The notes: a model not told the origin generated them from the sequence alone. Positions 7,760 to 44,248 are shown, numbered from the stretch's first letter. The stretch: DNA of 64,000 bases from Mesomycoplasma dispar (GCF_000941075.1 NZ_CP007229.1:806001-870000), one strand, 5' to 3'. A program made the numbers and translations.

Positions 7760-7771
7760 AAAAATAGGAGT

Positions 7772-8133
7772 AGACAAAAATAAAGAAAAATTTTCAATTT
7801 TTTCTTTACCTTTTGTAGGTTTATTGTTTTTTGTTATAACGCCAACAATTGCGATTTTAGCAGACTGAAAGATATATAGTTAATTATTATTTCGGATATC
7901 ATTGAATGTTTCGATTGATTCAAATGGATATTTGGTTGACACAATTACTAATTATAATCTATAATCATAAATATGCCGGAATTGATTATGACTTTCATGG
8001 TTGAAAATACAAAGTAACAACTTTTGGACATTGAGCAGCGGCGAGAGCTAAATATAAAGGTAAAGTAGCAAATATTTTGTCTAATTCTTATTATGATAAA
8101 GTTTGAAAATTATCTGAAAATTTATATAAATAA
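7772..8133 (+). pseudogene. Decayed small secreted peptide, possibly lactococcin 972-like bacteriocin
   Basis: AGGAG at 7767-7771 precedes a reading frame that has lost its ATG (ATA in its place). One frame encodes a signal-peptide-like segment (FSIFSLPFVGLLFFVITP, then IAILAD), then stops. Further pieces appear after frame changes, and the C-terminal part (frame ending at 8133) reads YNHKYAGIDYDFHGWKYK, TTFGHWAAARAKYKG and NSYYDKVW. Pattern order (Y-N-x-H, then GHWA-A-AK, then a terminal YYD/YYN motif) resembles mature lactococcin 972-family peptides. Those are typically followed by a large membrane-anchored protein and a MacB-like ABC transporter, as seen here. The family assignment is inference. 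The decay is seen directly. Confidence 0.42.
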
Positions 8134-8143
8134 TAAATAAGAG

Positions 8144-10033
8144 ATGATACCTAAAATTTTTGCAAAAAAATGAGTTATTTTTTCAATTATTGGAGCTAGT
8201 TTGGGATCAATTGCTATAAGTGCCCCTTTAATTTATTATGCTCTTACTAGGTCCGTTGAAGTTGAAATAAATAGATTCGAACCTAAAACATTAACTAACA
8301 ATTCAAAATCCGTATCTATTTTTTCTAATTCTGATTTAGAAAAAATAAACAGTTTTATTTTAGAAAACGAATTAAAAAAAGGTACAGAAAATAGTGACTA
8401 TGCTCTAAAAAATAATTTTCAGGAAGAGTATAATTACGCGTTTGCAAATGAATTTTTAGCAATTTTAAAAATTACAAATAATATTAACCAATTTGAGAAA
8501 CTTAAATCAATATTAAAAACTACGCCTAATTTATCGCGAAGAATACAATTTAGTTTGAGTGATATATACCAAATAAGCAACATTTATTTTAATATTGACC
8601 CAATTAATAACGTTCCTAAACTCGTTAATTTTATTTCAAAATATTATGACAAAAACAAAAAGGAATTTATTAATATTAATGATGATGATTTTCAAGATTT
8701 AGCATGAAATATTTTATATTTTAAATTAAATGGGCATGATTTTCAAAAATATTTCGATATTAAAGATTGAATTAAAAATGAATTTAAGAAAGCGAATTTT
8801 GAAAGTGATGAGGTGTTAATAAGTGATAATGAACCTCATAAAACTTTACAAAAAAAATCTTTTCTGCTTTTTAGAAAATATATCGCTATTTTAACAATAA
8901 TTAATAATTTAGATAAGGATTATTTTACCGACATTATAAAAGAAAAACAAAAATCAATAAATGTTTTAATTAAAAAATGAGATAACCATTTTAGACAAAT
9001 TATTGAAAATAAAGATAGAGAAGAAAACCAAAGTAGTTTTGTTATTTTACCAATGGTTAGTTTTTACTATTTTAGCAAGAATTTTTATAACTACTCGCCA
9101 GAGTATTTGTCAAAAATAAATGACTTTACTAAAAATTGGTTAATAAATTTTAGCTCATCAAGAGATCCAAGTTTTTATGGCTCAGGTCTTCTTTACTATT
9201 ATTTTGGAAATAATAAAAAAATAGAGCCCGAATTACTTAAAAAAAGTGAAGAAATTGTAGATTATGGCATTGAAAATGGTTTATTTGCTCACGAACCTGA
9301 CATCGCAAAAACTATTTTTGTAAAACAGATTTTAGACTTGAGTGAGAAAAAAGATAATCAAGTGCAAAAAATAAACCAAACAATAGAAACCTTATTTAAG
9401 CAAACAACGGAAAAACCGGAAAATAATCCTGATTTTTTTGAAGACTTATATAATTATGTATTTTTTTCAATTAAGGCTCATCCCGATTTTTTTAAGAGTC
9501 AAAAAGATTTTTTAAATACAATAATTGGTTATAGTAAATTTGTAAAAAAACCAATTGATTTTTTTTATTTGTTTAAAACAATTGCGCTATTAAATAGTTT
9601 TTATAATACAGACAAGCCGGCAAAAATTAATGTTTCCAAGCAAATTTTTGACAATATTATAAATGTAAAACTAGAAAAAAATGCTCCATTTTTTTTAAAA
9701 TTTATTAACTTATTTATTAAGTTTATTTTTAAAAATGAATTAGATGACAACAAGGAAATTGTTGAATTTATAAACCAAAATCTTGATGAAAAAAATATAA
9801 ATAACACTGAATTTTTAGAGCATCTTTTTTGGTATATTGAGTTTCAAAGTACAATTAAATCAAAATTAGAACACCAAATAGATTCTACTAAATTGGAAAA
9901 ATTTATTTCATTGTTAAAAAAAGATATTTTAGATAAAATAGATAAAAAAATAGGTAAAACACACTTTTTAAATATTAAAACTATTTATATGACTTATCAA
10001 ATAGATTGGCTACTTAAAAATGATAAAAATTAA
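8144..10033 (+). CDS. Membrane-anchored 629-aa protein of the bacteriocin-like ABC cluster
   Basis: Begins at ATG 8144, just after the small-peptide remnant. Residues about 9-32 form a single N-terminal membrane segment (WVIFSIIGASLGSIAISAPL). The remaining 600 residues are Lys/Asn/Phe-rich, predicted mostly helical and probably extracytoplasmic, with no second clear membrane segment and no lipobox. No enzyme motif is recognised. Its C-terminal end overlaps the start of the ABC transporter gene by 14 nt, so they are almost certainly one operon. By analogy with bacteriocin-type clusters it could be an accessory, immunity or export partner; this is inference only. Confidence 0.7.
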
Positions 10034-12374
10034 AAATTTGAGTAAAAATTTTAACCAAAAAGCTATTTTTAAAAATTTTAGCCTAGACATCTCGTCTAAT
10101 GAGTTGGTCTTTATCGTTGGACCTTCTGGGATTGGGAAAACTACTCTTATTAACCTAATCGCTAATTTTAGTCAAAAAGATGGAGGTGAAATTCTTTTTT
10201 ATAAAGATAACAAAATTGTTAAAAACCCTTTAATTGACGTTGTTTTTCAAGATTTTAACCTAATTGAATCCGCTACTGGTATGGAAAATATTAGAATTGG
10301 AGTTAATGCAATAAATTTTAATATTGATGAAAAGAATATTGAAGAAAACGCAAGTTTTGTTAATATTTCAAAAGAAAATTTAGCAAATAATGTAAGTAAT
10401 TTATCAGGCGGTGAAAAACAACGGATTGCGATTTTACGATCATTAACTCGTGAATCAGACTTTATTTTGTTAGACGAACCAACTGGAAATCTTGACTTCG
10501 AAAATGCTAAAATTCTTTTCGAAAAAATACAATTATTAAAGAAAAACAAGACTATTTTGATAGTTAGCCACAATTTAGATCTTGCTAAAAAATACGCTGA
10601 TAAAATAATTTACCTAAAAAATGAATCTGTATTAGAAATTGATAAAATTGAAGAAATAAATAAAGAAATAAATACAAATAAAAGTAATTATGAATTTAAG
10701 TTTGAAAAAAAACCATTAAAATTAGTTGATAAATTAAAATCTGTTTTTTTGTTTTTGAAACTCGACTTTAAAAACAAGGTTATTATTACCATTTTATTAA
10801 TTACCACATTTCTAATTAGCATTTTAAGTCTTAATTTGTTTGTTGCACTTGATACACAAGCAAAAGGTGTTGATTTGCAACGAATTCATCAATATAATTT
10901 AGATTCCTTTGAGGTTAGTAAAAAAGAAATTTCGCCGTTTTTCACTGAAGAAATTGAGAAATTTAACACTAAAAAAGACATTATTAATAAAATTGTTCCA
11001 CTTTTTAGGACTCAAAACTTTACTTTTGCTTATAACAACCATGAGAAAGAATTAATTTCTGAAAAAAATGAAATAGAACTAATTGACCAATCTGATTTTT
11101 TTAAAAATAGGTTCAAATTTGACAACAAAAACCTTCAAGGTAACTTTATACGAAATGAAAATGAAATTATTATTTCAAATTCAGTTGTGCAAAAATTAAA
11201 GATCATCAATCCTATTGGCAAAAAAATCAAAATCAAGGCCTTACGCAATTCAAATGTCGATGAAATTCCAACAATTTTTGAAGTTAGTATTGTCGGAGTA
11301 AACTATTCGACTAATTTATTGGGCAGAACACCTTCTTTTTTACATCATAATTTAGCAAAAAAAATTAATGAATCCTTTATCAAAAATTCTAGCGATCAAG
11401 GATTATTTAGTGATATAATAATTTCTCCTTTGAATGCAAAGAATTTTGAAATAGTTGTAATTGAAAAAAAATATTTATTAAAAGATTTAAAAGTTAAAAA
11501 TTTTAAAATTAATGACGGTCGACTTCCTGAAAAAAAAGATGAAATTGTTGTTTCAGTTAATACCCTTAAAAAAATAAATGAAATTATAGATAATTTAAAT
11601 AATAGGATTAATGAGTTAAACAAAAAAAATGATAATAAACTTGCAAAATACCCCAAACTTAAAATAGGAGAAAAAGTTAAATTATCGGCAAAAACTGGAG
11701 AAGATGTTCCTTTTAAAATTGTAGGAATTTTTGATCCAAAAGAAAATCCTGAATTAGAAGAAAAAAAACTAGAATCTAAATACCAAATTATAATGCACAA
11801 TGACGGTGATGATTATAGAAATACTATAAGACCATATGCTGCAAAAATATTTTTAAAATCTGATAATATTGATGAAAATTTAATATCTTTTAAAAAGGAT
11901 TTTTCAAATTTCCGTTTTACAAACGATCTTGAATCAGTTAAATTATTAATTTGAAATTCTACTTTTTTAGTAAAAGCAGTTCTACTTTTTATTCAAATAA
12001 TTCTTATAGTTTTACTATTGGTATTTTCAGTTCTTTATGCAAAAAATTTAACACAATCAAAGATAAAATCAATTGGAATTCTTAAATCACTCGGCGAAAA
12101 AACTCGAAAAATATTTTTCTTACATATATTAAATATTTTTGTAATTTCTTCCTTAATTTTCATTTCAGGTTTAATAATAAGTTTACCTAGCATTCCATAT
12201 TTGTATAAATTGATCACAACTGCAGATTTTGTAAGTCCAACTTATACGCAAAGTTTTATTAATTTTATTTTAATTTGATTCTCAATTAGCTTGCTTATTT
12301 TTCTTATCTATTTTTTTATATCATTGAGATATTACAAAAAACCTGTCACTGAACTTCTTAAAAATAATTTATAA
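10020..12374 (+). CDS. MacB/LolD-type ABC transporter with fused ATPase and permease
   Basis: A 784-aa fusion. Residues about 1-210 are an ATPase with Walker A GPSGIGKTT (34-42), a VFQDFNLIE Q-loop, signature LSGGEKQR, Walker B LLDEPTGNLD and the H-loop His in IVSHN. A membrane helix at about 250-275 is followed by a large, probably extracytoplasmic domain. The C-terminus has three helices with an FtsX/MacB-like arrangement and ends at 12374. Such transporters act on peptides or lipoproteins at the membrane rather than as classic importers. It overlaps the preceding gene by 14 nt. Lactococcin 972-type loci use the same transporter class, usually as separate proteins. Confidence 0.82.
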
Positions 12375-12527: not shown

Positions 12528-13013
12528 ATGATAGTTAAACCCAAAATTTCAAACAGTAAATTTTTAAAATTCATCAGGAAAAATCGCCTAATTATTATAC
12601 TTTCCTTCATTTTAGTTAGTCTTTTAATAGTTCTTTTACTTTTTATTTATGTCTTTCGTTTAGTGAGTGTGCAAGGAATTTCGATGTTACCGACACTAAA
12701 AGATGGGCAGAAAATTTTTATAAATAAAGTTAAAAAACCACAACGCAATGATGTTGTTGTTTTCAACTATAATAAAACAGTTTTAATTAAAAGGTTAGTC
12801 GGGATTCCTGGTGATAAATTAGAAGTTAACGAAAATTCAGTTCTAATAAACGGAAAATTAGTTGCTAGTTTTTCTGATTTAGGGTTTTGGAAATTTAACG
12901 GTATTATTCCTGAAAACAAATTTTTTGCTCTTGGTGATAATATTAATTTTAGCAATGACAGTCGTACTTTTGGACTGTTTGATTTAAATGCAATTCAAGG
13001 AATTTGGGCATAA
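12528..13013 (+). CDS. lepB: Signal peptidase I
   Basis: Membrane-bound serine protease that removes signal peptides from secreted proteins. It is 161 aa, short as in other mollicutes. One N-terminal membrane helix (about 20-45) is followed by the catalytic serine in QGISMLPT (Ser52), the general-base lysine in LIKRLVGIPGD (Lys88), and the C-terminal box GDNINFSNDSRTFG. The Ser/Lys dyad and all family boxes are present. The start ATG at 12528 is preceded by only a weak ribosome site. It lies downstream of the bacteriocin-like cluster, with a 150-nt gap. Confidence 0.93.
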   Translation: MIVKPKISNSKFLKFIRKNRLIIILSFILVSLLIVLLLFIYVFRLVSVQGISMLPTLKDGQKIFINKVKKPQRNDVVVFNYNKTVLIKRLVGIPGDKLEVNENSVLINGKLVASFSDLGFWKFNGIIPENKFFALGDNINFSNDSRTFGLFDLNAIQGIWA

Positions 13014-31666: not shown

Positions 31667-33439
31667 TTAAGATTTTTTATAATATTCTTTTAGTCTAAAA
31701 TCAACATATTCTCCATTTTCAATATCTAAAAAGTTGACTGATTTTTCGTGATTAGAATAAATTGATGTTAGTTCACAAACTGTCAATTTTTTCCTATCCT
31801 CTTCAGTTAAAAGATCAGATTCTTCGATAAAATCCTCAAAATGCTTTCTAGCATTCTTATTTTTATAATTTTTTTCATATAAACGAATATAATCAAATAA
31901 TTCGCTTAATTCCTTGTTTGTTCTTCTAATTACGTCAATTTTTAGTTCGTTATCGTAAGAATAAAAAACCGGATCAGTATTTCCGCGAAGAAAAATGTCT
32001 CTCTCAAGATCAGAAATTTTCTTATTATAATATAAATTTAACGGAAAATATTTTCCATTATAAACATGGTGATAAAACGGACATTTACCAATTCAATATA
32101 AAACATTTTCGCCATCACGATAAAGCAAAATTAAATTTGCCGTGACAATTTCCGGGATTCAACCCTCTGATCCAGAGTTACCACTAGGTTCGTAGGCAGT
32201 ATTTAGCCAAAAAACAGGGTTTTTTGAGTCAAACTGATTAAGGATATCATCATAAATTCCGTATTCGGAGCCACCAAAATAATATAATTCAAATTTAGAA
32301 ATATCAAGTGAAGCCCAACTTTTTAACACTAAACTATCAGGAATAAGACCATCCCATGTTGGATCTCAAAGAAAATGTACCCTGGGACCAAACATAATTT
32401 GAAAAATATGAACTAAATTTTGTTTGTTAGTTCATTTTTCTAGATCATCATAATATTTTTGACCATCCTTACCAAATAAATTAATACTGTGTTGACGATA
32501 ATTTGGTCCAAATTTATTTATTCAACTAATTAAAATTTGACTTCTGTCATCTTTTTTAAGGTCAAATTTCTTAATTCCATATTTTTTAAATTTTTCTAAA
32601 ATATTTTCATAAGTTTCTAATGTTTTTACATTTAGTGCTAAACGAAAATATTTTTCAAAATCCTGAAATTCATCTCTAATTTTTTCCAAATCTTCTTCGA
32701 TTTTTTGACCTAAATAAATTTTATTAGGATCAAAATGTTTTGAATTATACTCGTGTTGAATTGTTAGAAAATCAAAAATTTTTTCTCGATGATTTTCAAG
32801 ATTTTTCGGCTTTGCAAACGGAATTAATTCCTCAATTTCGTTAATTATTAACTGTTCAACTTCTTTTAGTCTTTCTTTGTTTGCATAAGACATTCTTAAA
32901 ATTGAAGGAAAAGAGATTGAATACTGGCAGTTTTTTTCATCATCAATGTTTTCAATCGCTACGACAACCATTTTTATATCAGTTCAAGTACCTTCATCTC
33001 AAAAAATTCCGTCTATGTTTTCAGTTGTTCTAGTTCAACGCCAGTAACGTTCGCTGATTATTTGATAAATTTCTTTAGAAATTTGCTTTTTAAAAAAACT
33101 AAAAAATCGTAATTCTTTTGAAAAAAAGACAGTTTTTTGAATTTCTTCAAGTTGAAGTCGATAAACATAATCGCCTTGTTTATAAAGGATTGCGATCATA
33201 TCTTCGATGGGATTATGTTCGTAAAAGAAAATGTTATGTTTTAAAAAATTTGTAAACTTTTCCTGACAATAAGTAAATGCGCAAGTAAATACTTTAACTC
33301 CGTCAGGTCGAATATATGGTTCATTTCAGTGTTTAAATATATTTCTTGTTGAAATAAAATCTCTTTGATCGACTTGTCTATATCTTAGTTCTTTAAATTT
33401 TTGCTTAATATTAATGAGGGAATTTGATTGGATCTCCAT
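31667..33439 (-). CDS. Tandem-array protein, copy 2
   Basis: 590 aa, ending in EYYKKS. It shares the short N-terminal variant (NIFFYEHNPIEDM, three codons shorter) with copy 7, but carries the middle variant EKIRDEFQDFEKYFRLAL as in copies 3-6. The central block is WDPTWDGLIPDS, and the late variable loop is YEPSGNSGSEGW, again like copy 7. The 138-nt spacer before copy 1 carries the same conserved upstream sequence as the other copies. Function is unknown; a soluble cytosolic protein is predicted. Confidence 0.75.
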
Positions 33440-33578
33440 ATAAATAATGAATTCTTTCTATTTTTTGGGTAGTTTTTTACAATAACTTGATATTTAGTAG
33501 AAAAAAATTCAAATTTTGAATGTTTTTTAGTTTTTAATAATTTGTTTATACTTTTTCTTCTTTTTTTGTTATTAATTT

Positions 33579-35360
33579 TTAAGATTTTTTATAAAGTTCC
33601 TTTAGTCTAAAATCAACATATTCTCCATTTTCAATATCTAAAAAGTTGACTGATTTTTCGTGATTAGAATAAATTGATGTTAGTTCACAAACTGTCAATT
33701 TTTTTCTATCTTCTTCAGTTAAAAGATTAGATTCTTCGATAAAATCCTCAAAATACTTTCTAGCATTGTTATTTTTATAATTTTTTTCATATAAACGAAT
33801 ATAATCAAATAATTCGCTTAATTCCTTGTTTGTTCTTCTAATTACGTCAATTTTTAGTTTGTTATCGTAAGAATAAAAAACCGGATCAGTATTTCCACGA
33901 AGAAAAATGTCTCTTTCAAGATCAGAAATTTTCTTATTATAATATAAATTTAACGGAAAATATTTTCCATTATAAACATGGTGATAAACCGGGCATTTAC
34001 CAATTCAGTATAGAACATTTTCGCCATCGCGATAAAGCAAAATTAAATTTGCCGTGACAATTTCCGGGATTCAACCATCAATTGCAGTGTGACGACTAGG
34101 TTCGTAGGCAGTATTTAGTCAAAAAACAGGGTTTTTTGAGTCGAACTGATTAAGAATATCATCATAAATTCCGTATTCGGGGCCACCAAAATAATATAAT
34201 TCAAATTTAGAAATATCAAGTGAAGCCCAACTTTTTAACACTAAACTATCAGGAAGCGGATCTTCTCATGTTGGATCTCAAAGAAAAAAAATAGTTGGAC
34301 CAAAAATAATTTGAAAAAAATGAACTAAATTTAGTTTATTAGTTCATTTTACCAGATCATCATAATATTTTTGACCATCTTTGCCGAATAAATTAATGGA
34401 GTGCTTGCGATAATTTGACCCAAACTTATTTATTCAACTAATTAAAATTTGACTTCTATCATCTTTTTCAAGGTCAAATTTCTTAATTCCATATTTTTTA
34501 AATTTTTCTAAAATATTTTCATAAGTTTCTAATGTTTTTACATTTAGCGCTAAACGAAAATATTCTTCAAAATCTTGAAATTTATCCTTAATTTTTTCCA
34601 AATCTTCTTCGATTTTTTGACCTAAATAAATTTTATTAGGATCAAAATGTTTTGAATTATATTCGTGCTGAATTGTTAGAAAGTCAAAAATTTTTTCTCG
34701 ATGATTTTCAAGATTTTTCGGCTTTGCAAACGGAATTAATTCCTCAATTTCGTTAATTATTAACTGTTCAACTTCTTTTAGTCTTTCTTTGTTTGCATAA
34801 GACATTCTTAAAATTGAAGGAAAAGAGATTGAATACTGGCAGTTTTTTTCATCATCAATATTTTCAATCACTACGACAACCATTTTTATATCAGTTCAAG
34901 TACCTTCATCTCAAAAAATTCCGTCTATGTTTTCAGTTGTTCTAGTTCAACGCCAGTAACGTTCGCTGATTATTTGATAAATTTCTTTAGAAATTTGCTT
35001 TTTAAAAAAACTAAAAAATCGCAATTCTTTTGAAAAAAAGACGGCTTTTTGAATTTCTTCAAGTTGAAGTCGATAAACATAATCGCCTTGTTTATAAAGG
35101 ATTGCGATCATATCTTCGATGGCATTATGTTTAGTCACAAGAGAAGGAGAAGAGTTGATTTCTAAAAAATGTAAAAAATCCTGTTGACAATAAGTAGTTA
35201 CGCAAGTAAATACTTTAACTCCGTCAGGTCGAATATATGGTTCATTTCAGTGTTTATAAAGATTTCTTGTTGAAATAAAATCTCTTTGATCGACTTGTCT
35301 ATATCTTAGTTCTTTAAATTTTTGCTTAATATTAATGAGGGAATTTGATTGGATCTCCAT
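33579..35360 (-). CDS. Tandem-array protein, copy 3
   Basis: 593 aa, almost identical over its whole length to copy 4; one clear difference is Val for Ala in the MVVVxIEN core. The N-terminal variable block is INSSPSLVTKHNAIEDM, the middle block is EKIKDKFQDFEEYFRLAL, the central block is WDPTWEDPLPDS and the late loop is YEPSRHTAIDGW. It ends in ELYKKS. The near-identity including the spacer indicates a very recent unequal-crossover duplication of a unit of about 1921 bp. Confidence 0.75.
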
Positions 35361-35499
35361 ATAAATAATGAATTCTTTCTATTTTTTGGGTAGTTTTTTA
35401 CAATAACTTGATATTTAGTAGAAAAAAATTCAAATTTTGAATGTTTTTTAGTTTTTAATAATTTGTTTATACTTTTTCTTCTTTTTTTGTTATTAATTT

Positions 35500-37281
35500 T
35501 TAAGATTTTTTATAAAGTTCCTTTAGTCTAAAATCAACATATTCTCCATTTTCAATATCTAAAAAGTTGACTGATTTTTCGTGATTAGAATAAATTGATG
35601 TTAGTTCACAAACTGTCAATTTTTTTCTATCTTCTTCAGTTAAAAGATTAGATTCTTCGATAAAATCCTCAAAATACTTTCTAGCATTGTTATTTTTATA
35701 ATTTTTTTCATATAAACGAATATAATCAAATAATTCGCTTAATTCCTTGTTTGTTCTTCTAATTACGTCAATTTTTAGTTTGTTATCGTAAGAATAAAAA
35801 ACCGGATCAGTATTTCCACGAAGAAAAATGTCTCTTTCAAGATCAGAAATTTTCTTATTATAATATAAATTTAACGGAAAATATTTTCCATTATAAACAT
35901 GGTGATAAACCGGGCATTTACCAATTCAGTATAGAACATTTTCGCCATCGCGATAAAGCAAAATTAAATTTGCCGTGACAATTTCCGGGATTCAACCATC
36001 AATTGCAGTGTGACGACTAGGTTCGTAGGCAGTATTTAGTCAAAAAACAGGGTTTTTTGAGTCGAACTGATTAAGAATATCATCATAAATTCCGTATTCG
36101 GGGCCACCAAAATAATATAATTCAAATTTAGAAATATCAAGTGAAGCCCAACTTTTTAACACTAAACTATCAGGAAGCGGATCTTCTCATGTTGGATCTC
36201 AAAGAAAAAAAATAGTTGGACCAAAAATAATTTGAAAAAAATGAACTAAATTTAGTTTATTAGTTCATTTTACCAGATCATCATAATATTTTTGACCATC
36301 TTTGCCGAATAAATTAATGGAGTGCTTGCGATAATTTGACCCAAACTTATTTATTCAACTAATTAAAATTTGACTTCTATCATCTTTTTCAAGGTCAAAT
36401 TTCTTAATTCCATATTTTTTAAATTTTTCTAAAATATTTTCATAAGTTTCTAATGTTTTTACATTTAGCGCTAAACGAAAATATTCTTCAAAATCTTGAA
36501 ATTTATCCTTAATTTTTTCCAAATCTTCTTCGATTTTTTGACCTAAATAAATTTTATTAGGATCAAAATGTTTTGAATTATATTCGTGCTGAATTGTTAG
36601 AAAGTCAAAAATTTTTTCTCGATGATTTTCAAGATTTTTCGGCTTTGCAAACGGAATTAATTCCTCAATTTCGTTAATTATTAACTGTTCAACTTCTTTT
36701 AGTCTTTCTTTGTTTGCATAAGACATTCTTAAAATTGAAGGAAAAGAGATTGAATACTGGCAGTTTTTTTCATCATCAATATTTTCAATCGCTACGACAA
36801 CCATTTTTATATCAGTTCAAGTACCTTCATCTCAAAAAATTCCGTCTATGTTTTCAGTTGTTCTAGTTCAACGCCAGTAACGTTCGCTGATTATTTGATA
36901 AATTTCTTTAGAAATTTGCTTTTTAAAAAAACTAAAAAATCGCAATTCTTTTGAAAAAAAGACGGCTTTTTGAATTTCTTCAAGTTGAAGTCGATAAACA
37001 TAATCGCCTTGTTTATAAAGGATTGCGATCATATCTTCGATGGCATTATGTTTAGTCACAAGAGAAGGAGAAGAGTTGATTTCTAAAAAATGTAAAAAAT
37101 CCTGTTGACAATAAGTAGTTACGCAAGTAAATACTTTAACTCCGTCAGGTCGAATATATGGTTCATTTCAGTGTTTATAAAGATTTCTTGTTGAAATAAA
37201 ATCTCTTTGATCGACTTGCCTATATCTTAATTCTTTAAATTTTTGCTTAATATTAATGAGGGAATTTGATTGGATCTCCAT
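35500..37281 (-). CDS. Tandem-array protein, copy 4
   Basis: 593 aa, nearly the same as copy 3 in coding sequence and downstream spacer. Its upstream spacer instead matches that of copy 5 (AATTAG in place of GGGTAG before the start, and an extra A in the run), so the copy 3/4 similarity ends inside the 5' region. Variable blocks are as in copy 3. No membrane or secretion signal. Confidence 0.75.
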
Positions 37282-37421
37282 ATAAATAATGAATTCTTTC
37301 TATTTTTTAATTAGTTTTTTACAATAATTTGATATTTAGTAGAAAAAAAATTCAAATTTTGAATGTTTTTTAGTTATTGATAATTTGTTTATACTTTTTC
37401 TTCTTTTTTTGTTATTAATTT

Positions 37422-39203
37422 TTAAGATTTTTTATAAAGTTCCTTTAGTCTAAAATCAACATATTCTCCATTTTCAATATCTAAAAAGTTGACTGATTTT
37501 TCGTGATTAGAATAAATTGATGTTAGTTCACAAACTGTCAATTTTTTTCTATCCTCATCAGTTAAAAGATCAGATTCTTCGATAAAATCCTCAAAATGCT
37601 TTCTAGCATTTTTATTTTTATAATTTTTTTCATATAAACGAATATAATCAAATAATTCGCTTAATTCCTTGTTTGTTCTTCTAATTACGTCAATTTTTAG
37701 TTCGTTATCGTAAGAATAAAAAACCGGATCAGTATTTCCACGAAGAAAAATGTCTCTTTCAAGATCAGAAATTTTCTTATTATAATATAAATTTAACGGA
37801 AAATATTTTCCATTATAAACATGGTGATAAAACGGGCATTTACCAATTCAGTATAGAACATTTTCGCCATCGCGATAAAGCAAAATTAAATTTGCCGCGA
37901 CAATTTCCGGAATTCAACCATCAATTGCAGTGTGACGACTAGGTTCGTAGGCAGTATTTAGTCAAAAAACAGGGTTTTTTGAGTCGAACTGATTAAGAAT
38001 ATCATCATAAATTCCGTATTCGGAACCACCAAAATAATATAATTCAAATTTAGAAATATCAAGTGAAGCCCAACTTTTTAACACTAAACTATCAGGAAGC
38101 GGATCTTCTCATGTTGGATCTCAAAGAAAAAAAATAGTTGGACCAAAAATAATTTGAAAAAAATGAACTAAATTTAGTTTATTAGTTCATTTTACCAGAT
38201 CATCATAATATTTTTGGCCATCTTTGCCGAATAAATTAATGGAGTGCTTGCGATAATTTGACCCAAACTTATTTATTCAACTAATTAAAATTTGACTTCT
38301 ATCATCTTTTTCAAGGTCAAATTTCTTAATTCCATATTTTTTAAATTTTTCTAAAATATTTTCATAAGTTTCTAATGTTTTTACATTTAGCGCTAAACGA
38401 AAATATTCTTCAAAATCTTGAAATTTATCCTTAATTTTTTCCAAATCTTCTTCGATTTTTTGACCTAAATAAATTTTATTAGGATCAAAATGTTTTGAAT
38501 TATATTCATGCTGAATTGTTAGAAAGTCAAAAATTTTTTCCCGATGATTTTCAAGATTTTTTGGTCTTGCAAACGGAATTAATTCCTCAATTTCGTTAAT
38601 TATTAACTGTTCAACTTCTTTTAGTCTTTCTTTGTTTGCATAAGACATTCTTAAAATTGAAGGAAAAGAGATTGAATACTGGCAGTTTTTTTCATCATCA
38701 ATGTTTTCAATCGCTACGACAACCATTTTTATATCAGTTCAAGTACCTTCATCTCAAAAAATTCCGTCTACTCGCCTATATGTTCTAGTTCAGCGGCAGT
38801 AACGTTCGCTGATTATTTGATAAATTTCTTTAGAAATTTGCTTTTTAAAAAAACTAAAAAATCGCAATTCTTTTGAAAAAAAGACGGCTTTTTGAATTTC
38901 TTCAAGTTGAAGTCGATAAACATAATCGCCTTGTTTATAAAGGATTGCGATCATATCTTCGATGGCATTATGTTTAGTAACAAGAGAAGGAAAAGAGTTG
39001 ATTTCTAAAAAATGTAAAAAATCCTGTTGACAATAAGTAGTTACGCAAGTAAATACTTTAACTCCGTCAGGTCGAATATATGGTTCATTTCAGTGTTTAT
39101 AAAGATTTCTTGTTGAAATAAAATCTCTTTGATCGACTTGCCTATATCTTAATTCTTTAAATTTTTGCTTAATATTAATGAGGGAATTTGATTGGATCTC
39201 CAT
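37422..39203 (-). CDS. Tandem-array protein, copy 5
   Basis: 593 aa. Very similar to copy 6. It differs from copies 3 and 4 in the block following the SERYW motif (TYRRVDGIFW in place of TENIDGIFW), in FARPKNLEN instead of FAKPKNLEN, and in a few substitutions in the C-terminal part. Middle, central and late blocks are of the copy 3-6 type. Soluble, unknown function. Confidence 0.75.
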
Positions 39204-39343
39204 ATAAATAATGAATTCTTTCTATTTTTTAATTAGTTTTTTACAATAATTTGATATTTAGTAGAAAAAAAATTCAAATTTTGAATGTTTTTTAGTTATT
39301 GATAATTTGTTTATACTTTTTCTTCTTTTTTTGTTATTAATTT

Positions 39344-41125
39344 TTAAGATTTTTTATAAAGTTCCTTTAGTCTAAAATCAACATATTCTCCATTTTCAAT
39401 ATCTAAAAAGTTGATCGATTTTTCGTGGTTAGAATAAATTGATGTTAGTTCACAAACTGTCAATTTTTTTCTATCTTCTTCAGTTAAAAGATCAGATTCT
39501 TCGATAAAATCCTCAAAATACTTTCTAGCATTTTTATTTTTATAATTTTTTTCATATAAACGAATATAATCAAATAATTCGCTTAATTCCTTGTTTGTTC
39601 TTCTAATTACGTCAATTTTTAGTTTGTTATCGTAAGAATAAAAAACCGGATCAGTATTTCCACGAAGAAAAATGTCTCTTTCAAGATCAGAAATTTTCTT
39701 ATTATAATATAAATTTAACGGAAAATATTTTCCATTATAAACATGGTGATAAAACGGGCATTTACCAATTCAGTATAGAACATTTTCGCCATCGCGATAA
39801 AGCAAAATTAAATTTGCCGTGACAATTTCCGGGATTCAACCATCAATTGCAGTGTGACGACTAGGTTCGTAGGCAGTATTTAGTCAAAAAACAGGGTTTT
39901 TTGAGTCGAACTGATTAAGAATATCATCATAAATTCCGTATTCGGAGCCACCAAAATAATATAATTCAAATTTAGAAATATCAAGTGAAGCCCAACTTTT
40001 TAACACTAAACTATCAGGAAGCGGATCTTCTCATGTTGGATCTCAAAGAAAAAAAATAGTTGGACCAAAAATAATTTGAAAAAAATGAACTAAATTTAGT
40101 TTATTAGTTCATTTTACCAGATCATCATAATATTTTTGGCCATCTTTGCCGAATAAATTAATGGAGTGCTTGCGATAATTTGACCCAAACTTATTTATTC
40201 AACTAATTAAAATTTGACTTCTATCATCTTTTTCAAGGTCAAATTTCTTAATTCCATATTTTTTAAATTTTTCTAAAATATTTTCATAAGTTTCTAATGT
40301 TTTTACATTTAGCGCTAAACGAAAATATTCTTCAAAATCTTGAAATTTATCCTTAATTTTTTCCAAATCTTCTTCGATTTTTTGACCTAAATAAATTTTA
40401 TTAGGATCAAAATGTTTTGAATTATATTCATGCTGAATTGTTAGAAAGTCAAAAATTTTTTCCCGATGATTTTCAAGATTTTTTGGTCTTGCAAACGGAA
40501 TTAATTCCTCAATTTCGTTAATTATTAACTGTTCAACTTCTTTTAGTCTTTCTTTGTTTGCATAAGACATTCTTAAAATTGAAGGAAAAGAGATTGAATA
40601 CTGGCAGTTTTTTTCATCATCAATGTTTTCAATCGCTACGACAACCATTTTTATATCAGTTCAAGTACCTTCATCTCAAAAAATTCCGTCTACTCGCCTA
40701 TATGTTCTAGTTCAACGCCAGTAACGTTCGCTGATTATTTGATAAATTTCTTTAGAAATTTGCTTTTTAAAAAAACTAAAAAATCGCAATTCTTTTGAAA
40801 AAAAGACGGCTTTTTGAATTTCTTCAAGTTGAAGTCGATAAACATAATCGCCTTGTTTATAAAGGATTGCGATCATATCTTCGATGGCATTATGTTTAGT
40901 AACAAGAGAAGGAAAAGAGTTGATTTCTAAAAAATGTAAAAAATTCTCTTGACAATAAGTAGTTACGCAAGTAAATACTTTAACTCCGTCAGGTCGAATA
41001 TATGGTTCATTTCAGTGTTTATAAAGATTTCTTGTTGAAATAAAATCTCTTTGATCCACTTGCCTATATCTTAATTCTTTAAATTTCTGCTTAATATTAA
41101 TGAGGGAATTTGATTGGATCTCCAT
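39344..41125 (-). CDS. Tandem-array protein, copy 6
   Basis: 593 aa, close to copy 5. In the N-terminal block the sequence before the variable loop reads CQENFLHFL, as in copy 1, rather than CQQDFLHFL. This is consistent with patchwork exchange between array members. The last 100 residues carry NEKSINFLD in place of NHEKSVNFLD. No signal sequence. Confidence 0.75.
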
Positions 41126-41265
41126 ATAAATAATGAATTCTTTCTATTTTTTGGGTAGTTTTTTACAATAATTTGATATTTAGTAGAAAAAAATTCAAAT
41201 TTTTAATGTTTTTTGGTTTTTAATAATTTGTTTATACTTTTTCTTCTTTTTTTTGTTATTAATTT

Positions 41266-43038
41266 TTAAGATTTTTTATAATATTCTTTTAATCTAAAAT
41301 CAACATATTCTCCATTTTCAATATCTAAAAAGTTGATCGATTTTTCGTGGTCAGAATAAATTGATGTTAGTTCACAAACTGTCATTTTTTTTCTATCCTC
41401 ATCAGTTAAAAGATCAGATTCTTCGATAAAATCCTCAAAATGCTTTCTAGCATTCTTATTTTTATAATTTTTTTCATATAAACGAATATAATCAAATAAT
41501 TCGCTTAATTCCTTGTTTGTTCTTCTAATTACGTCAATTTTTAGTTCGTTATCGTAAGAATAAAAAACCGGATCAGTATTTCCGCGAAGAAAAATGTCTC
41601 TCTCAAGATCAGAAATTTTCTTATTATAATATAAATTTAACGGAAAATATTTCCCATTATAAACATGGTGATAAAACGGGCATTTACCAATTCAGTATAG
41701 AACATTTTCGCCATCGCGATAAAGCAAAATTAAATTTGCCGTGACAATTTCTGGGATTCAACCCTCTGATCCGTAGTTACCACTAGGTTCGTAGGCAGTA
41801 TTTAGTCAAAAAACAGGGTTTTTTGAGTCGAACTGATTAAGAATATCATCATAAATTCCGTATTCGGAACCACCAAAATAATATAATTCAAATTTAGAAA
41901 TATCAAGTGAAGCCCAACTTTTTAACACTAAACTATCAGGAATAGGACCATCCAATGTAGGATCTCAAAGAAAATATACGCTGGGACCAAACATAATTTG
42001 GAAAAGATGAACTAAATTTACTTTATTAGTTCATTTTTCTAGATCATCATAATATTTTTGACCATCTTTGCCGAATAAATTAATACTGTGTTGACGATAA
42101 TTTGGTCCAAATTTATTTATTCAACTAATTAAAATTTGACTTCTGTCATCTTTTTCAAGGTCGAATTTCTTAATTCCATATTTTTTAAATTTTTCTAAAA
42201 TATTTTCATAAGTTTCTAATGTTTTTACATTTAGTGCTAGCGAATAATCGTCTTTTAAATCCTGAAATCCATTTTCAATTTTTTTTAAATCATCTTCGAT
42301 TTTTTGACCTAAATAAATTTTATTAGGATCAAAATGTTTTGAATTATATTCATGCTGAATTGTTAGAAAGTCAAAAATTTTTTCTCGATGATTTTCAAGA
42401 TTTTTTGGTTTTGCAAACGGAATTAATTCCTCAATTTCGTTAATTATTAACTGTTCAACTTCTTTTAGTCTTTCTTTGTTTGCATAAGACATTCTTAAAA
42501 TTGAAGGAAAAGAGATTGAATACTGGCAGTTTTTTTCATCATCAATGTTTTCAATCGCTACGACAACCATTTTTATATCAGTTCAAGTACCTTCATCTCA
42601 AAAAATTCCGTCTACTTGCCTATATGTTCTAGTTCAACGCCAGTAACTTTCGCTGATTATTTGATAAATTTCTTTAGAAATTTGCTTTTTAAAAAAACTA
42701 AAAAATCGTAATTCTTTTGAAAAAAAGACAGCTTTTTGAATTTCTTCAAGTTGAAGTCGATAAACATAATCGCCTTGTTTATAAAGGATTGCGATCATAT
42801 CTTCGATAGGATTATGTTCGTAAAAGGAAATGTTATGTTTTAAAAAATTTGTAAACTTTTCTTGACAATAAGTAAATGCGCAAGTAAATACTCTAACTCC
42901 GTCAGGTCGAATATATGGTTCATTTCAGTGTTTAAATATATTTCTTGTTGAAATAAAATCTCTTTGATCAACTTGCCTATATCTTAGTTCTTTAAATTTT
43001 TGCTTAATATTAATGAGGGAATTTGATTGGATCTCCAT
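41266..43038 (-). CDS. Tandem-array protein, copy 7 (promoter-proximal)
   Basis: 590 aa. First gene of the array in the direction of transcription. Its start (43038) lies inside the 3' end of the 412-aa membrane protein gene (29-nt overlap), so translation is probably coupled. It combines the short N-terminal variant of copy 2 (FYEHNPIEDM) with the middle variant of copy 1 (KKIENGFQDLKDDYSLAL), a mosaic. The central block is WDPTLDGPIPDS and the late loop is YEPSGNYGSEGW. This is the likely ancestral junction, because the other copies retain about 20 nt of this overlap upstream of their ATG. Confidence 0.75.
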
Positions 43039-44248
43039 ATAAATAATGAATTCTTTCTACAGATTTAAGTTCGATTCGATCTTTTTTTTCTTTTTCTTCT
43101 CCATCAACATTAGGGCGAAGTTTAACTCTTCTAACATGATAGTTTCTAAAAAGAATTGTTTTATCATCTACCTTTTCCTTAATCCTTTTTTCACGGTTTT
43201 TATCCTTCACCTTCCCATCTGCATACAATGTTTCAATTGAGGGCATATTCATATATCAATTTATGCTTTTATCAAAAGGTTGATCGATAAATTTGTCGAC
43301 AGTATAGTAACTTTTTGGATAATTTTCATCACTATCATTATTTAAATAAGGAACATTATATCCCAATTTAGCGCCAATTAATAAATTAACTGTTGAGGCA
43401 ACTTTATAGGCTAATTTTTTCATTTTTTTCTTTTTATATGAGTAAAAATTAGGTTTAAAACCTAATTTTTGTGCAAATTTAGGGTTTTGTTCTAAATTAA
43501 CATTAGGGAAAAAATTGTTGTATAACAAACCTTTAAGGTCAAAAGCATCTTGGAGACTTAAAACCGAAAATTCTCAGGCAAGCGCTTCGCTAATTTTAAC
43601 AGGGCTAATTAAAAATTTTGGTGCATAACCTGGAACATTATCAAAAAAATAAGCTAAATGGACACCATCAAATTTTTTAAGTTGACTTGTGCTAGTAACT
43701 TCAACAAATTCAACTTTAGATAATGCTGCAGCTCTTGAACTTAATTTTGTATTAGTTTTTGAAGCTAAAATATTTAGATCAACAGTGATTGAATTATTAG
43801 TTCTAGCAACTATTGCATCTTGATAATCATTTTCTTTTTGCGGTTTTTGTGGTGAATATCTGCCTGGATTGAAAGTAATATTTGGTAGTTTTGGTAAAAT
43901 TGGTCGGTTTTGATTTGATTGATTTGCAATCCAACTAGCAAAAAGAATACCGCCGGCGCCAAGAATTAAAAACGGAACTGCCGGAGCAAGACCGTTTTTT
44001 TGTGGGGGGATTTTTTCCTTAACTGCCGGCGAAATTAGATCATTTTTGTTATCAGACACTGCTGACATCTGGGTGATTTTATATAAATTTTTAGAATTTT
44101 CACTTTGATTTTCAATTGTTTTTTGACTAATAACGGCTTGATTTTCCAAACCTTTATTAGTAGCAGAAATTATAGATAATGTCGAAAAAGTTAGGAAAAT
44201 AAAAAGTTTACTAACTTTTTTAATCAAATTTTTTTTGATTTTCTTCAT
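43010..44248 (-). CDS. Membrane-anchored 412-aa protein upstream of the tandem array
   Basis: A basic N-terminus and hydrophobic segment (about 12-30) could be a signal or anchor. A second hydrophobic segment, FLILGAGGILFASWIAN (about 90-110), is followed by Pro/Asn-rich sequence and a domain with DLNILASKT, VEFVEVTSTSQLKKF and YFFDNVPGYAPKF. The last 120 residues are highly charged (KNREKRIKEKVDDK, GEEKEKKDR). The C-terminal 9 codons overlap copy 7. No family is recognised. A fragment of a relative lies at 29549-29686. Context suggests function together with the array proteins. Confidence 0.7.

What the first reader, a model, noticed from the sequence alone, without database searches (positions are those of the whole stretch)
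7760..12374. Bacteriocin-like cluster: decayed secreted peptide, anchored protein and fused ABC transporter
The order small secreted peptide, large membrane-associated protein, and MacB-like ABC transporter matches lactococcin 972-type loci. The peptide remnant shows signal-peptide texture, a GHWA-A-AK motif and an ending YYD like the YYN of that family. Bacteriocin systems are hardly known in mycoplasmas. Here the peptide gene is broken while both partner genes are intact, as if immunity or transport was kept after the toxin was lost.
Basis: partly seen in the sequence, partly recalled or inferred. Interest (0 to 1): 0.75.

Follow-up and report, generated by a model that had tools for sequence, protein, structure and literature searches.

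The report
Mycoplasma secreted-protein and partner gene module
A respiratory mycoplasma keeps two working genes, for a surface-anchored protein and an ABC transporter, beside a broken gene for a secreted protein; intact relatives suggest matched secreted-protein/partner pairs, perhaps a toxin and its immunity, and not a lactococcin 972 bacteriocin.

Summary
The locus is real. The reading "lactococcin 972" is not supported; "secreted effector lost, protection kept" fits the evidence but is unproven. The remnant (7767-8133) is the wreck of a ~220-230-aa Sec-type secreted protein, with two intact tandem copies in the same genome and more in relatives. The family has no Pfam, NCBIfam or PDB match, no relation to lactococcin 972 (PF09683 silent; hhalign probability 1%), and was found only in this genus. 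The 629-aa protein has one N-terminal TM and a helical ectodomain modelled as an alpha/alpha toroid. The 784-aa protein is a MacB-type NBD-FtsX transporter. (1) Across 7-10 intact loci the mature secreted protein co-diverges with the 629 ectodomain (r=0.98-0.99) but not with the ABC nor, within the main clade, with the 629 C-terminal part. (2) In three relatives the secreted gene was lost by a shared lesion, yet single-copy 629 and its ABC stay open at dN/dS 0.31-0.45. In a distant congener the secreted and 629 families are still linked, in another order. Best reading: an effector-immunity-like module of which the window copy is an orphan partner set (0.45). Main rival: an antigenically variable surface complex (0.3).

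The parts
7767..7883 (+). signal-peptide-like remnant (VDKNKEKFSIFSLPFVGLLFFVITPTIAILADWKIYS then stop), no start codon
   Evidence: translation; resembles the (T/L)TP(A/T)IVA signal peptides of intact homologues
7884..7964 (+). middle remnant ...NVSIDSNGYLVDTITNYN in the first frame; about 110-120 codons before it are missing
   Evidence: IDSNGYL is nearly invariant in intact A-type proteins
7963..8133 (+). C-terminal remnant HKYAGIDYDFHGWKYKVTTFGHWAAARAKYKGKVANILSNSYYDKVWKLSENLYK in another frame
   Evidence: E 1e-17 to 3e-21 to intact homologues; 77-79% DNA identity to the closest intact copies
8144..10033 (+). 629-aa protein: one N-terminal TM (10-31), extracellular helical domain (model residues about 89-383, alpha/alpha-toroid-like, fast-evolving), conserved helical C-terminal part (from about 420)
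10020..12374 (+). 784-aa MacB-type ABC transporter: NBD 1-220, TM1 about 250-279, large extracytoplasmic domain, TM2-4 about 642-772 (FtsX)
   Evidence: PF00005 1.9e-26, PF02687 8.5e-07; TIGR03608 147.7 bits, cut-off 254.85; hydropathy
12528..13013 (+). signal peptidase I, directly downstream; similar adjacency recurs at related loci in three other genomes (possible accessory gene)
   Evidence: TIGR02227 1.1e-34

Best explanation
The locus is a degenerate copy of a genus-specific effector-immunity-like module. In intact copies a ~223-aa protein is exported by Sec (shown: signal peptide; inferred: cleavage at the conserved N-A-x-A site by signal peptidase I). Its mature part is recognised outside the membrane by the matching alpha/alpha-toroid-like ectodomain of the anchored 629-aa protein (inferred from co-divergence). 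The 629-aa protein is coupled through its conserved C-terminal part to the MacB-type NBD-FtsX transporter, which uses ATP to expel or sequester the effector from the membrane, so that the cell and kin with the same allele are protected (inferred, by analogy with MacB-type detoxification). In the window copy the effector gene is dead and the two partner genes are kept, as orphan immunity. The target would be other mycoplasmas, probably at the membrane, not lipid II.
For: Linked intact triads in relatives and in the same genome. Mature secreted protein vs 629 ectodomain distances r=0.98 (7 loci) and 0.99 (10 loci), Mantel p 0.0007 and 0.0003; vs 629 C-part r=0.05 in the main clade; vs ABC r=-0.27 to 0.19. 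The variable segment is bounded by a homogeneous signal peptide (main clade) and a homogeneous 629C+ABC. Secreted gene lost by a shared truncation in G004/G009/G013, yet the only copy of 629 there and its ABC are open with dN/dS 0.31-0.45, where about 6 nonsense changes per gene per lineage are expected if neutral. Window 629 vs its closest relative: dN/dS 0.27. In G003 two diverged secreted + 629-family pairs are linked in another order and orientation. Retention of orphan immunity genes after effector loss has precedent (PMC5361080).
Against: No toxicity or protection has been shown, and no fold is known for the secreted protein (AlphaFold failed, pLDDT 30). The secreted protein and 629 ectodomain are adjacent, so linkage plus gene conversion on both sides could give the same correlation without contact. 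B-type modules have the secreted protein and transporters but no 629 protein, so 629 is not always needed. The 629N of the window is 95.6% identical to G011's, but the remnant only 78%, so the pair at this locus may not share one history. Host-immune selection on surface proteins could also drive the divergence.
Confidence: 0.45

Rival explanations
1. Antigenically variable surface complex: the secreted protein stays bound at the surface by the anchored toroid protein (for example in host interaction), both diversify together under host immunity, and the MacB-type transporter serves export or release. Loss of the secreted protein is phase or antigen loss.
For: All carriers are in one animal-associated genus; multi-copy with gene conversion; variable extracellular parts against constant membrane parts; G003 lacks this ABC next to the pair, so the pair can work without it.
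Against: Long-term purifying selection on 629 and ABC after loss of the secreted gene is harder to explain if they only display it; no repeat-based switching was noticed at the loci (not searched systematically).
Confidence: 0.3
2. Redundant decaying duplicate: the window copy is simply one of several copies on its way out, and 629 and ABC are intact only because decay started at the 5' gene or because gene conversion from intact copies renews them.
For: Two other copies in the same genome, one with a truncated ABC; window 629C is 98% identical to its own paralogues, suggesting recent conversion; transposase remnant near the tandem copies.
Against: In G004, G009 and G013 there is a single 629 copy and still constraint; the window ABC (83-86% identity to all others) and 629N (at most 82% to its own paralogues) have not been renewed.
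Confidence: 0.18
3. MacB/LolCDE-like housekeeping export or lipoprotein release, the secreted protein being an ordinary substrate or a periplasmic-like partner.
For: FtsX architecture; solitary paralogues exist; in G005 related ABC genes sit beside lipoprotein genes.
Against: Tight allele matching of the secreted protein with 629N but not with the transporter; patchy distribution within the genus.
Confidence: 0.05
4. A true lactococcin 972-type bacteriocin locus.
For: Gene order; TIGR03608 is the best model for the ATPase.
Against: PF09683 absent with a working control; hhalign 1%; length; 629 not 7-TM; mycoplasmas have no lipid II.
Confidence: 0.02

Closest known systems
Lactococcin 972 locus (LclA / LclB 7-TM / LclC ATPase; PF09683, TIGR03608)
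   Same: order of a Sec-secreted small protein, a membrane protein and a MacB-like ABC; ATPase scores best with TIGR03608
   Different: secreted protein unrelated by profile and 2-3 times longer; ATPase and permease fused; extra 1-TM helical protein instead of a 7-TM protein; host lacks lipid II
MacAB / YknWXYZ type VII ABC systems that protect against secreted toxins (from general knowledge)
   Same: NBD plus 4-TM FtsX permease with a large extracytoplasmic domain, and an upstream gene for a 1-TM protein with a large ectodomain; possible removal of a toxin from the membrane
   Different: the 629-aa protein has no membrane-fusion-protein (HlyD/MacA) match and its model is all-helical, toroid-like
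Polymorphic effector-immunity arrays with orphan immunity genes (e.g. Vibrio cholerae T6SS, PMC5361080)
   Same: variable matched pair beside constant machinery; immunity kept after effector loss; homologous recombination at the borders
   Different: no contact-dependent secretion machine; Sec-type signal peptide; partner is a large membrane-anchored ectodomain with an ABC transporter; toxicity not shown
alpha/alpha-toroid proteins (complement C3d/C4d, prenyltransferase beta, transcobalamin, terpene cyclases)
   Same: fold of residues about 89-383 of the 629-aa model (VIA Z up to 10.9, rmsd about 4 A over 230 residues)
   Different: about 5-8% identity; membrane-anchored; no catalytic or ligand motif identified

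Membership tests
Lactococcin 972 bacteriocins (PF09683/TIGR01653) | sequence match to the family profile | tested here: not met
   no hit at E<=10 for intact proteins; 0 of 58 related genomes; control: three true members found in Bacilli; hhalign probability 1%
Lactococcin 972 bacteriocins (PF09683/TIGR01653) | short precursor (about 90-150 aa) with GG-x-W-x-x-G and S-x-Y-x-H, and a C-terminal AYYN-like end | tested here: not met
   intact homologues 220-297 aa; none of these motifs among invariant columns (compare A5)
Lactococcin 972 export ABC (TIGR03608) | score above the curated cut-off (254.85 bits) | tested here: not met
   147.7-151.1 bits, best of all NCBIfam models but also best for related transporters without such neighbours
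Bacteriocin-associated 7-TM immunity protein (LclB/DUF1430) | profile match and about 7 TM helices in the middle protein | tested here: not met
   no Pfam or NCBIfam hit; one TM at residues 10-31
MacB-type (type VII) ABC transporter | NBD followed by TM1, large extracytoplasmic domain, TM2-4 with FtsX | tested here: met
   PF00005, PF02687, TM pattern 250-279 / 642-679 / 696-729 / 743-772
MacA/HlyD membrane fusion proteins (629-aa protein) | HlyD/biotin-lipoyl domains | tested here: not met
   no Pfam hit in the 629 family; all-helical model
alpha/alpha toroid fold (629 ectodomain) | structural match well above background | tested here: inconclusive
   most of the top VIA rows are alpha/alpha toroids, Z up to 10.9, but Foldseek best E 5.6e-03 and Z under 13 for a helical model
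Effector-immunity (polymorphic toxin-like) modules | allele-matched variable pair next to constant machinery | tested here: met
   also linked in G003 in another arrangement; linkage alone not excluded as the cause
Effector-immunity (polymorphic toxin-like) modules | toxicity of the secreted protein and neutralisation by the partner | not testable with these tools
   needs protein and growth assays

The most novel reading that the evidence does not exclude
Mesomycoplasma carries a previously undescribed kin-directed secreted-toxin system: a Sec-exported protein of a new family, a membrane-anchored alpha/alpha-toroid immunity receptor whose ectodomain co-evolves with it, and a fused MacB-type transporter. 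The window locus, and single-copy loci in three relatives, are orphan immunity sets kept against neighbours. Signal peptidase I beside several loci may be partly devoted to this protein family.
Probability: 0.35. Interest if true: 0.85.

Novelty: new variant of a known kind. Interest (0 to 1): 0.6.

Why it matters
My searches of an open-access paper library found no bacteriocin-like or effector-immunity system described for mycoplasmas. If true, wall-less minimal bacteria fight kin with a protein that cannot act on the cell wall, protected by a receptor plus transporter pair. The co-divergence of the secreted protein with one half of its neighbour's gene points to a directly testable binding interface. 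If the antigen rival is right, the module is a variable surface complex in respiratory pathogens of livestock, of interest for diagnostics.

Tried and rejected
Lactococcin 972 by Pfam, NCBIfam and hhalign: rejected. AlphaFold of the intact secreted protein with 3 sequences: pLDDT 30, unusable; only the two related-loci loci and the window were eligible for that tool, so a deeper alignment was not sent. Foldseek of the 629 model: nothing at E<=0.001. PDB profile searches with the secreted and 629 families: nothing significant. PADLOC: only ATPase-type hits to mad3/mad8. Viral contigs and plasmids: none. Strict dedication of signal peptidase I to the secreted family: G006 and G010 keep B-type secreted genes without an intact signal peptidase I hit, so not strict. 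Paper searches found no description of the cluster; the library is open-access only.

Full report
What is there. The window is mycoplasma DNA (code 4), lying at G000:C1:806001-870000 of a 1.08-Mb genome in the genus of Mesomycoplasma ovipneumoniae (the two genome loci with titles are M. ovipneumoniae SC01). From 7767 to 8133 lies a broken gene; 8144-10033 encodes 629 aa; 10020-12374 encodes 784 aa; 12528-13013 encodes signal peptidase I. The broken gene has a signal-peptide-like start without start codon, in-frame stops, a frameshift and a large internal deletion.

What the broken gene was. Its C-terminal fragment matches intact genes at E 1e-17 to 3e-21, each directly upstream of a 629-aa homologue, in G007, G008, G011, G014 and twice in the same genome at 385-389 kb. 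The intact products are 220-234 aa with a signal peptide. A diverged B-type of 269-297 aa stands directly before one or more ABC-FtsX genes with no 629 gene. Invariant features across both types are Y-x-G-G-x-F-x-x-D-K-x-x-W, a W-x-x-G-x-x-x-P-S segment and G-W-x-Y. No Pfam, NCBIfam or PDB relative was found. Among 298 genomes of the order and 392 of the phylum all clear matches are in this genus.

Not lactococcin 972. PF09683 gives nothing, although the same model finds three true members in other Bacilli. A profile-profile comparison with those members gives 1%. The ATPase does score best with TIGR03608, but at 148-151 bits against a cut-off of 255, and so do related transporters without such neighbours. 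The 629-aa protein has one TM helix, not seven.

The partners. The ABC protein has an N-terminal ATPase, one TM helix, a large extracytoplasmic part and three TM helices with FtsX: MacB architecture. The AlphaFold model of the 629-aa protein is confident for about residues 100-380, with dips. A second look at Foldseek's candidates lists mostly alpha/alpha toroids at the top (complement C3d/C4d, prenyltransferases, transcobalamin, terpene cyclases), Z up to 10.9 over about 230 residues. Foldseek alone gave no significant hit, so this is a lead.

Matched pairs. Across intact loci the mature secreted protein and the 629 ectodomain have nearly the same distance matrix (r 0.98 for 7 main-clade loci, 0.99 for 10 loci; Mantel p 0.0007 and 0.0003). 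The C-terminal part of the same 629 gene (r 0.05 in the main clade) and the adjoining ABC (r -0.27 to 0.19) do not follow. Example: in G007 two loci differ by 32% in the mature secreted gene and 37% in the 629 ectodomain but by 7% in the 629 C-part and 5% in the ABC. In the main clade the signal-peptide DNA is also homogeneous. So a cassette that starts at the mature secreted protein and ends near codon 420 of 629 is exchanged or maintained as a unit between homogenised borders. This looks like an effector and its cognate partner; linkage with conversion on both sides is an alternative. In G003 two diverged secreted proteins and two diverged 629-family proteins (hhalign 98% for each family; 37% identity within each pair) are again linked, in another order and orientation and without this ABC beside them. 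The association therefore survives rearrangement.

Loss and retention. G004, G009 and G013 share a 5'-truncated, stop-ridden secreted gene. Each has one 629 copy and still an open 629 and adjoining ABC gene, with pairwise dN/dS 0.38-0.45 and 0.31-0.36, similar to intact lineages; about six nonsense changes per gene per lineage would be expected under neutrality. In the window the 629 gene against its closest relative (G011) gives 0.27. So 'secreted gene lost, partners kept' is a repeated and apparently selected state. The window 629 ectodomain is 95.6% identical to G011's while the remnant is only 78% identical, so decay and recombination have both acted here.

Signal peptidase I. It lies beside module genes in the window, G003, G005 and G011. 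The G011 genome length equals what I remember for M. hyopneumoniae J, whose signal peptidase I gene is MHJ_0022; a proteome paper notes that this species appears to lack SPase I activity (PMC4772806). A peptidase mainly serving this family is an attractive guess, but B-type secreted genes persist where the peptidase is absent or broken (G006, G010), so it is not strict.

Verdict. Shown: family, linkage, co-divergence, recurrent loss with retained constraint, MacB architecture. Inferred: contact between secreted protein and 629 ectodomain, antibacterial activity, protection, coupling to the transporter. I hold effector-immunity at 0.45, a variable surface complex at 0.3, a redundant decaying duplicate at 0.18.

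Noticed in passing
window 12528-13013; L167 5994-6470; L166 4949-5431; L071 12033-12515: Signal peptidase I lies directly beside genes of this module (or, in G005, a related ABC gene) in four genomes, while the M. ovipneumoniae-group orthologues lie elsewhere; in G000 that other copy is truncated (L172 5135-5461) and in G009 it carries two stops.
   Followed up: partly
window 29687-43038: Tandem array of seven long, very similar TGA-rich ORFs (590-613 aa, all starting MEIQSNSLINIKQKFKELRYRQV), next to a 412-aa secreted-looking protein (43010-44248).
   Followed up: no
window 26568-29424: A gene pair (551-aa nucleotidyltransferase-like and 409-aa membrane transporter-like) resembling by eye the pair that directly flanks the A-type module in G004, G007, G008, G013 and G014.
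   Followed up: no
L068 12835-13059; L079 2685-3680; L112 11309-12304; L172 5608-6455: Transposase genes or remnants (Mutator-type PF00872 at L068; integrase-core type at L079; similar-looking ORFs at the others) near several copies of the module.
   Followed up: partly
L074 14170-15935, L075 15978-17746, L110 11548-14571, L112 1886-4896: Tandem paralogues of a ~249-aa membrane protein (MKSILL...) follow the A-type ABC gene in several relatives and one copy follows the tandem module in the same genome, but none follows the window copy.
   Followed up: no
L125 1799-8218 (G005): Two related ABC-FtsX genes alternate with two ~261-266-aa lipoprotein genes, one of which was tested and shows no family match.
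   Followed up: partly
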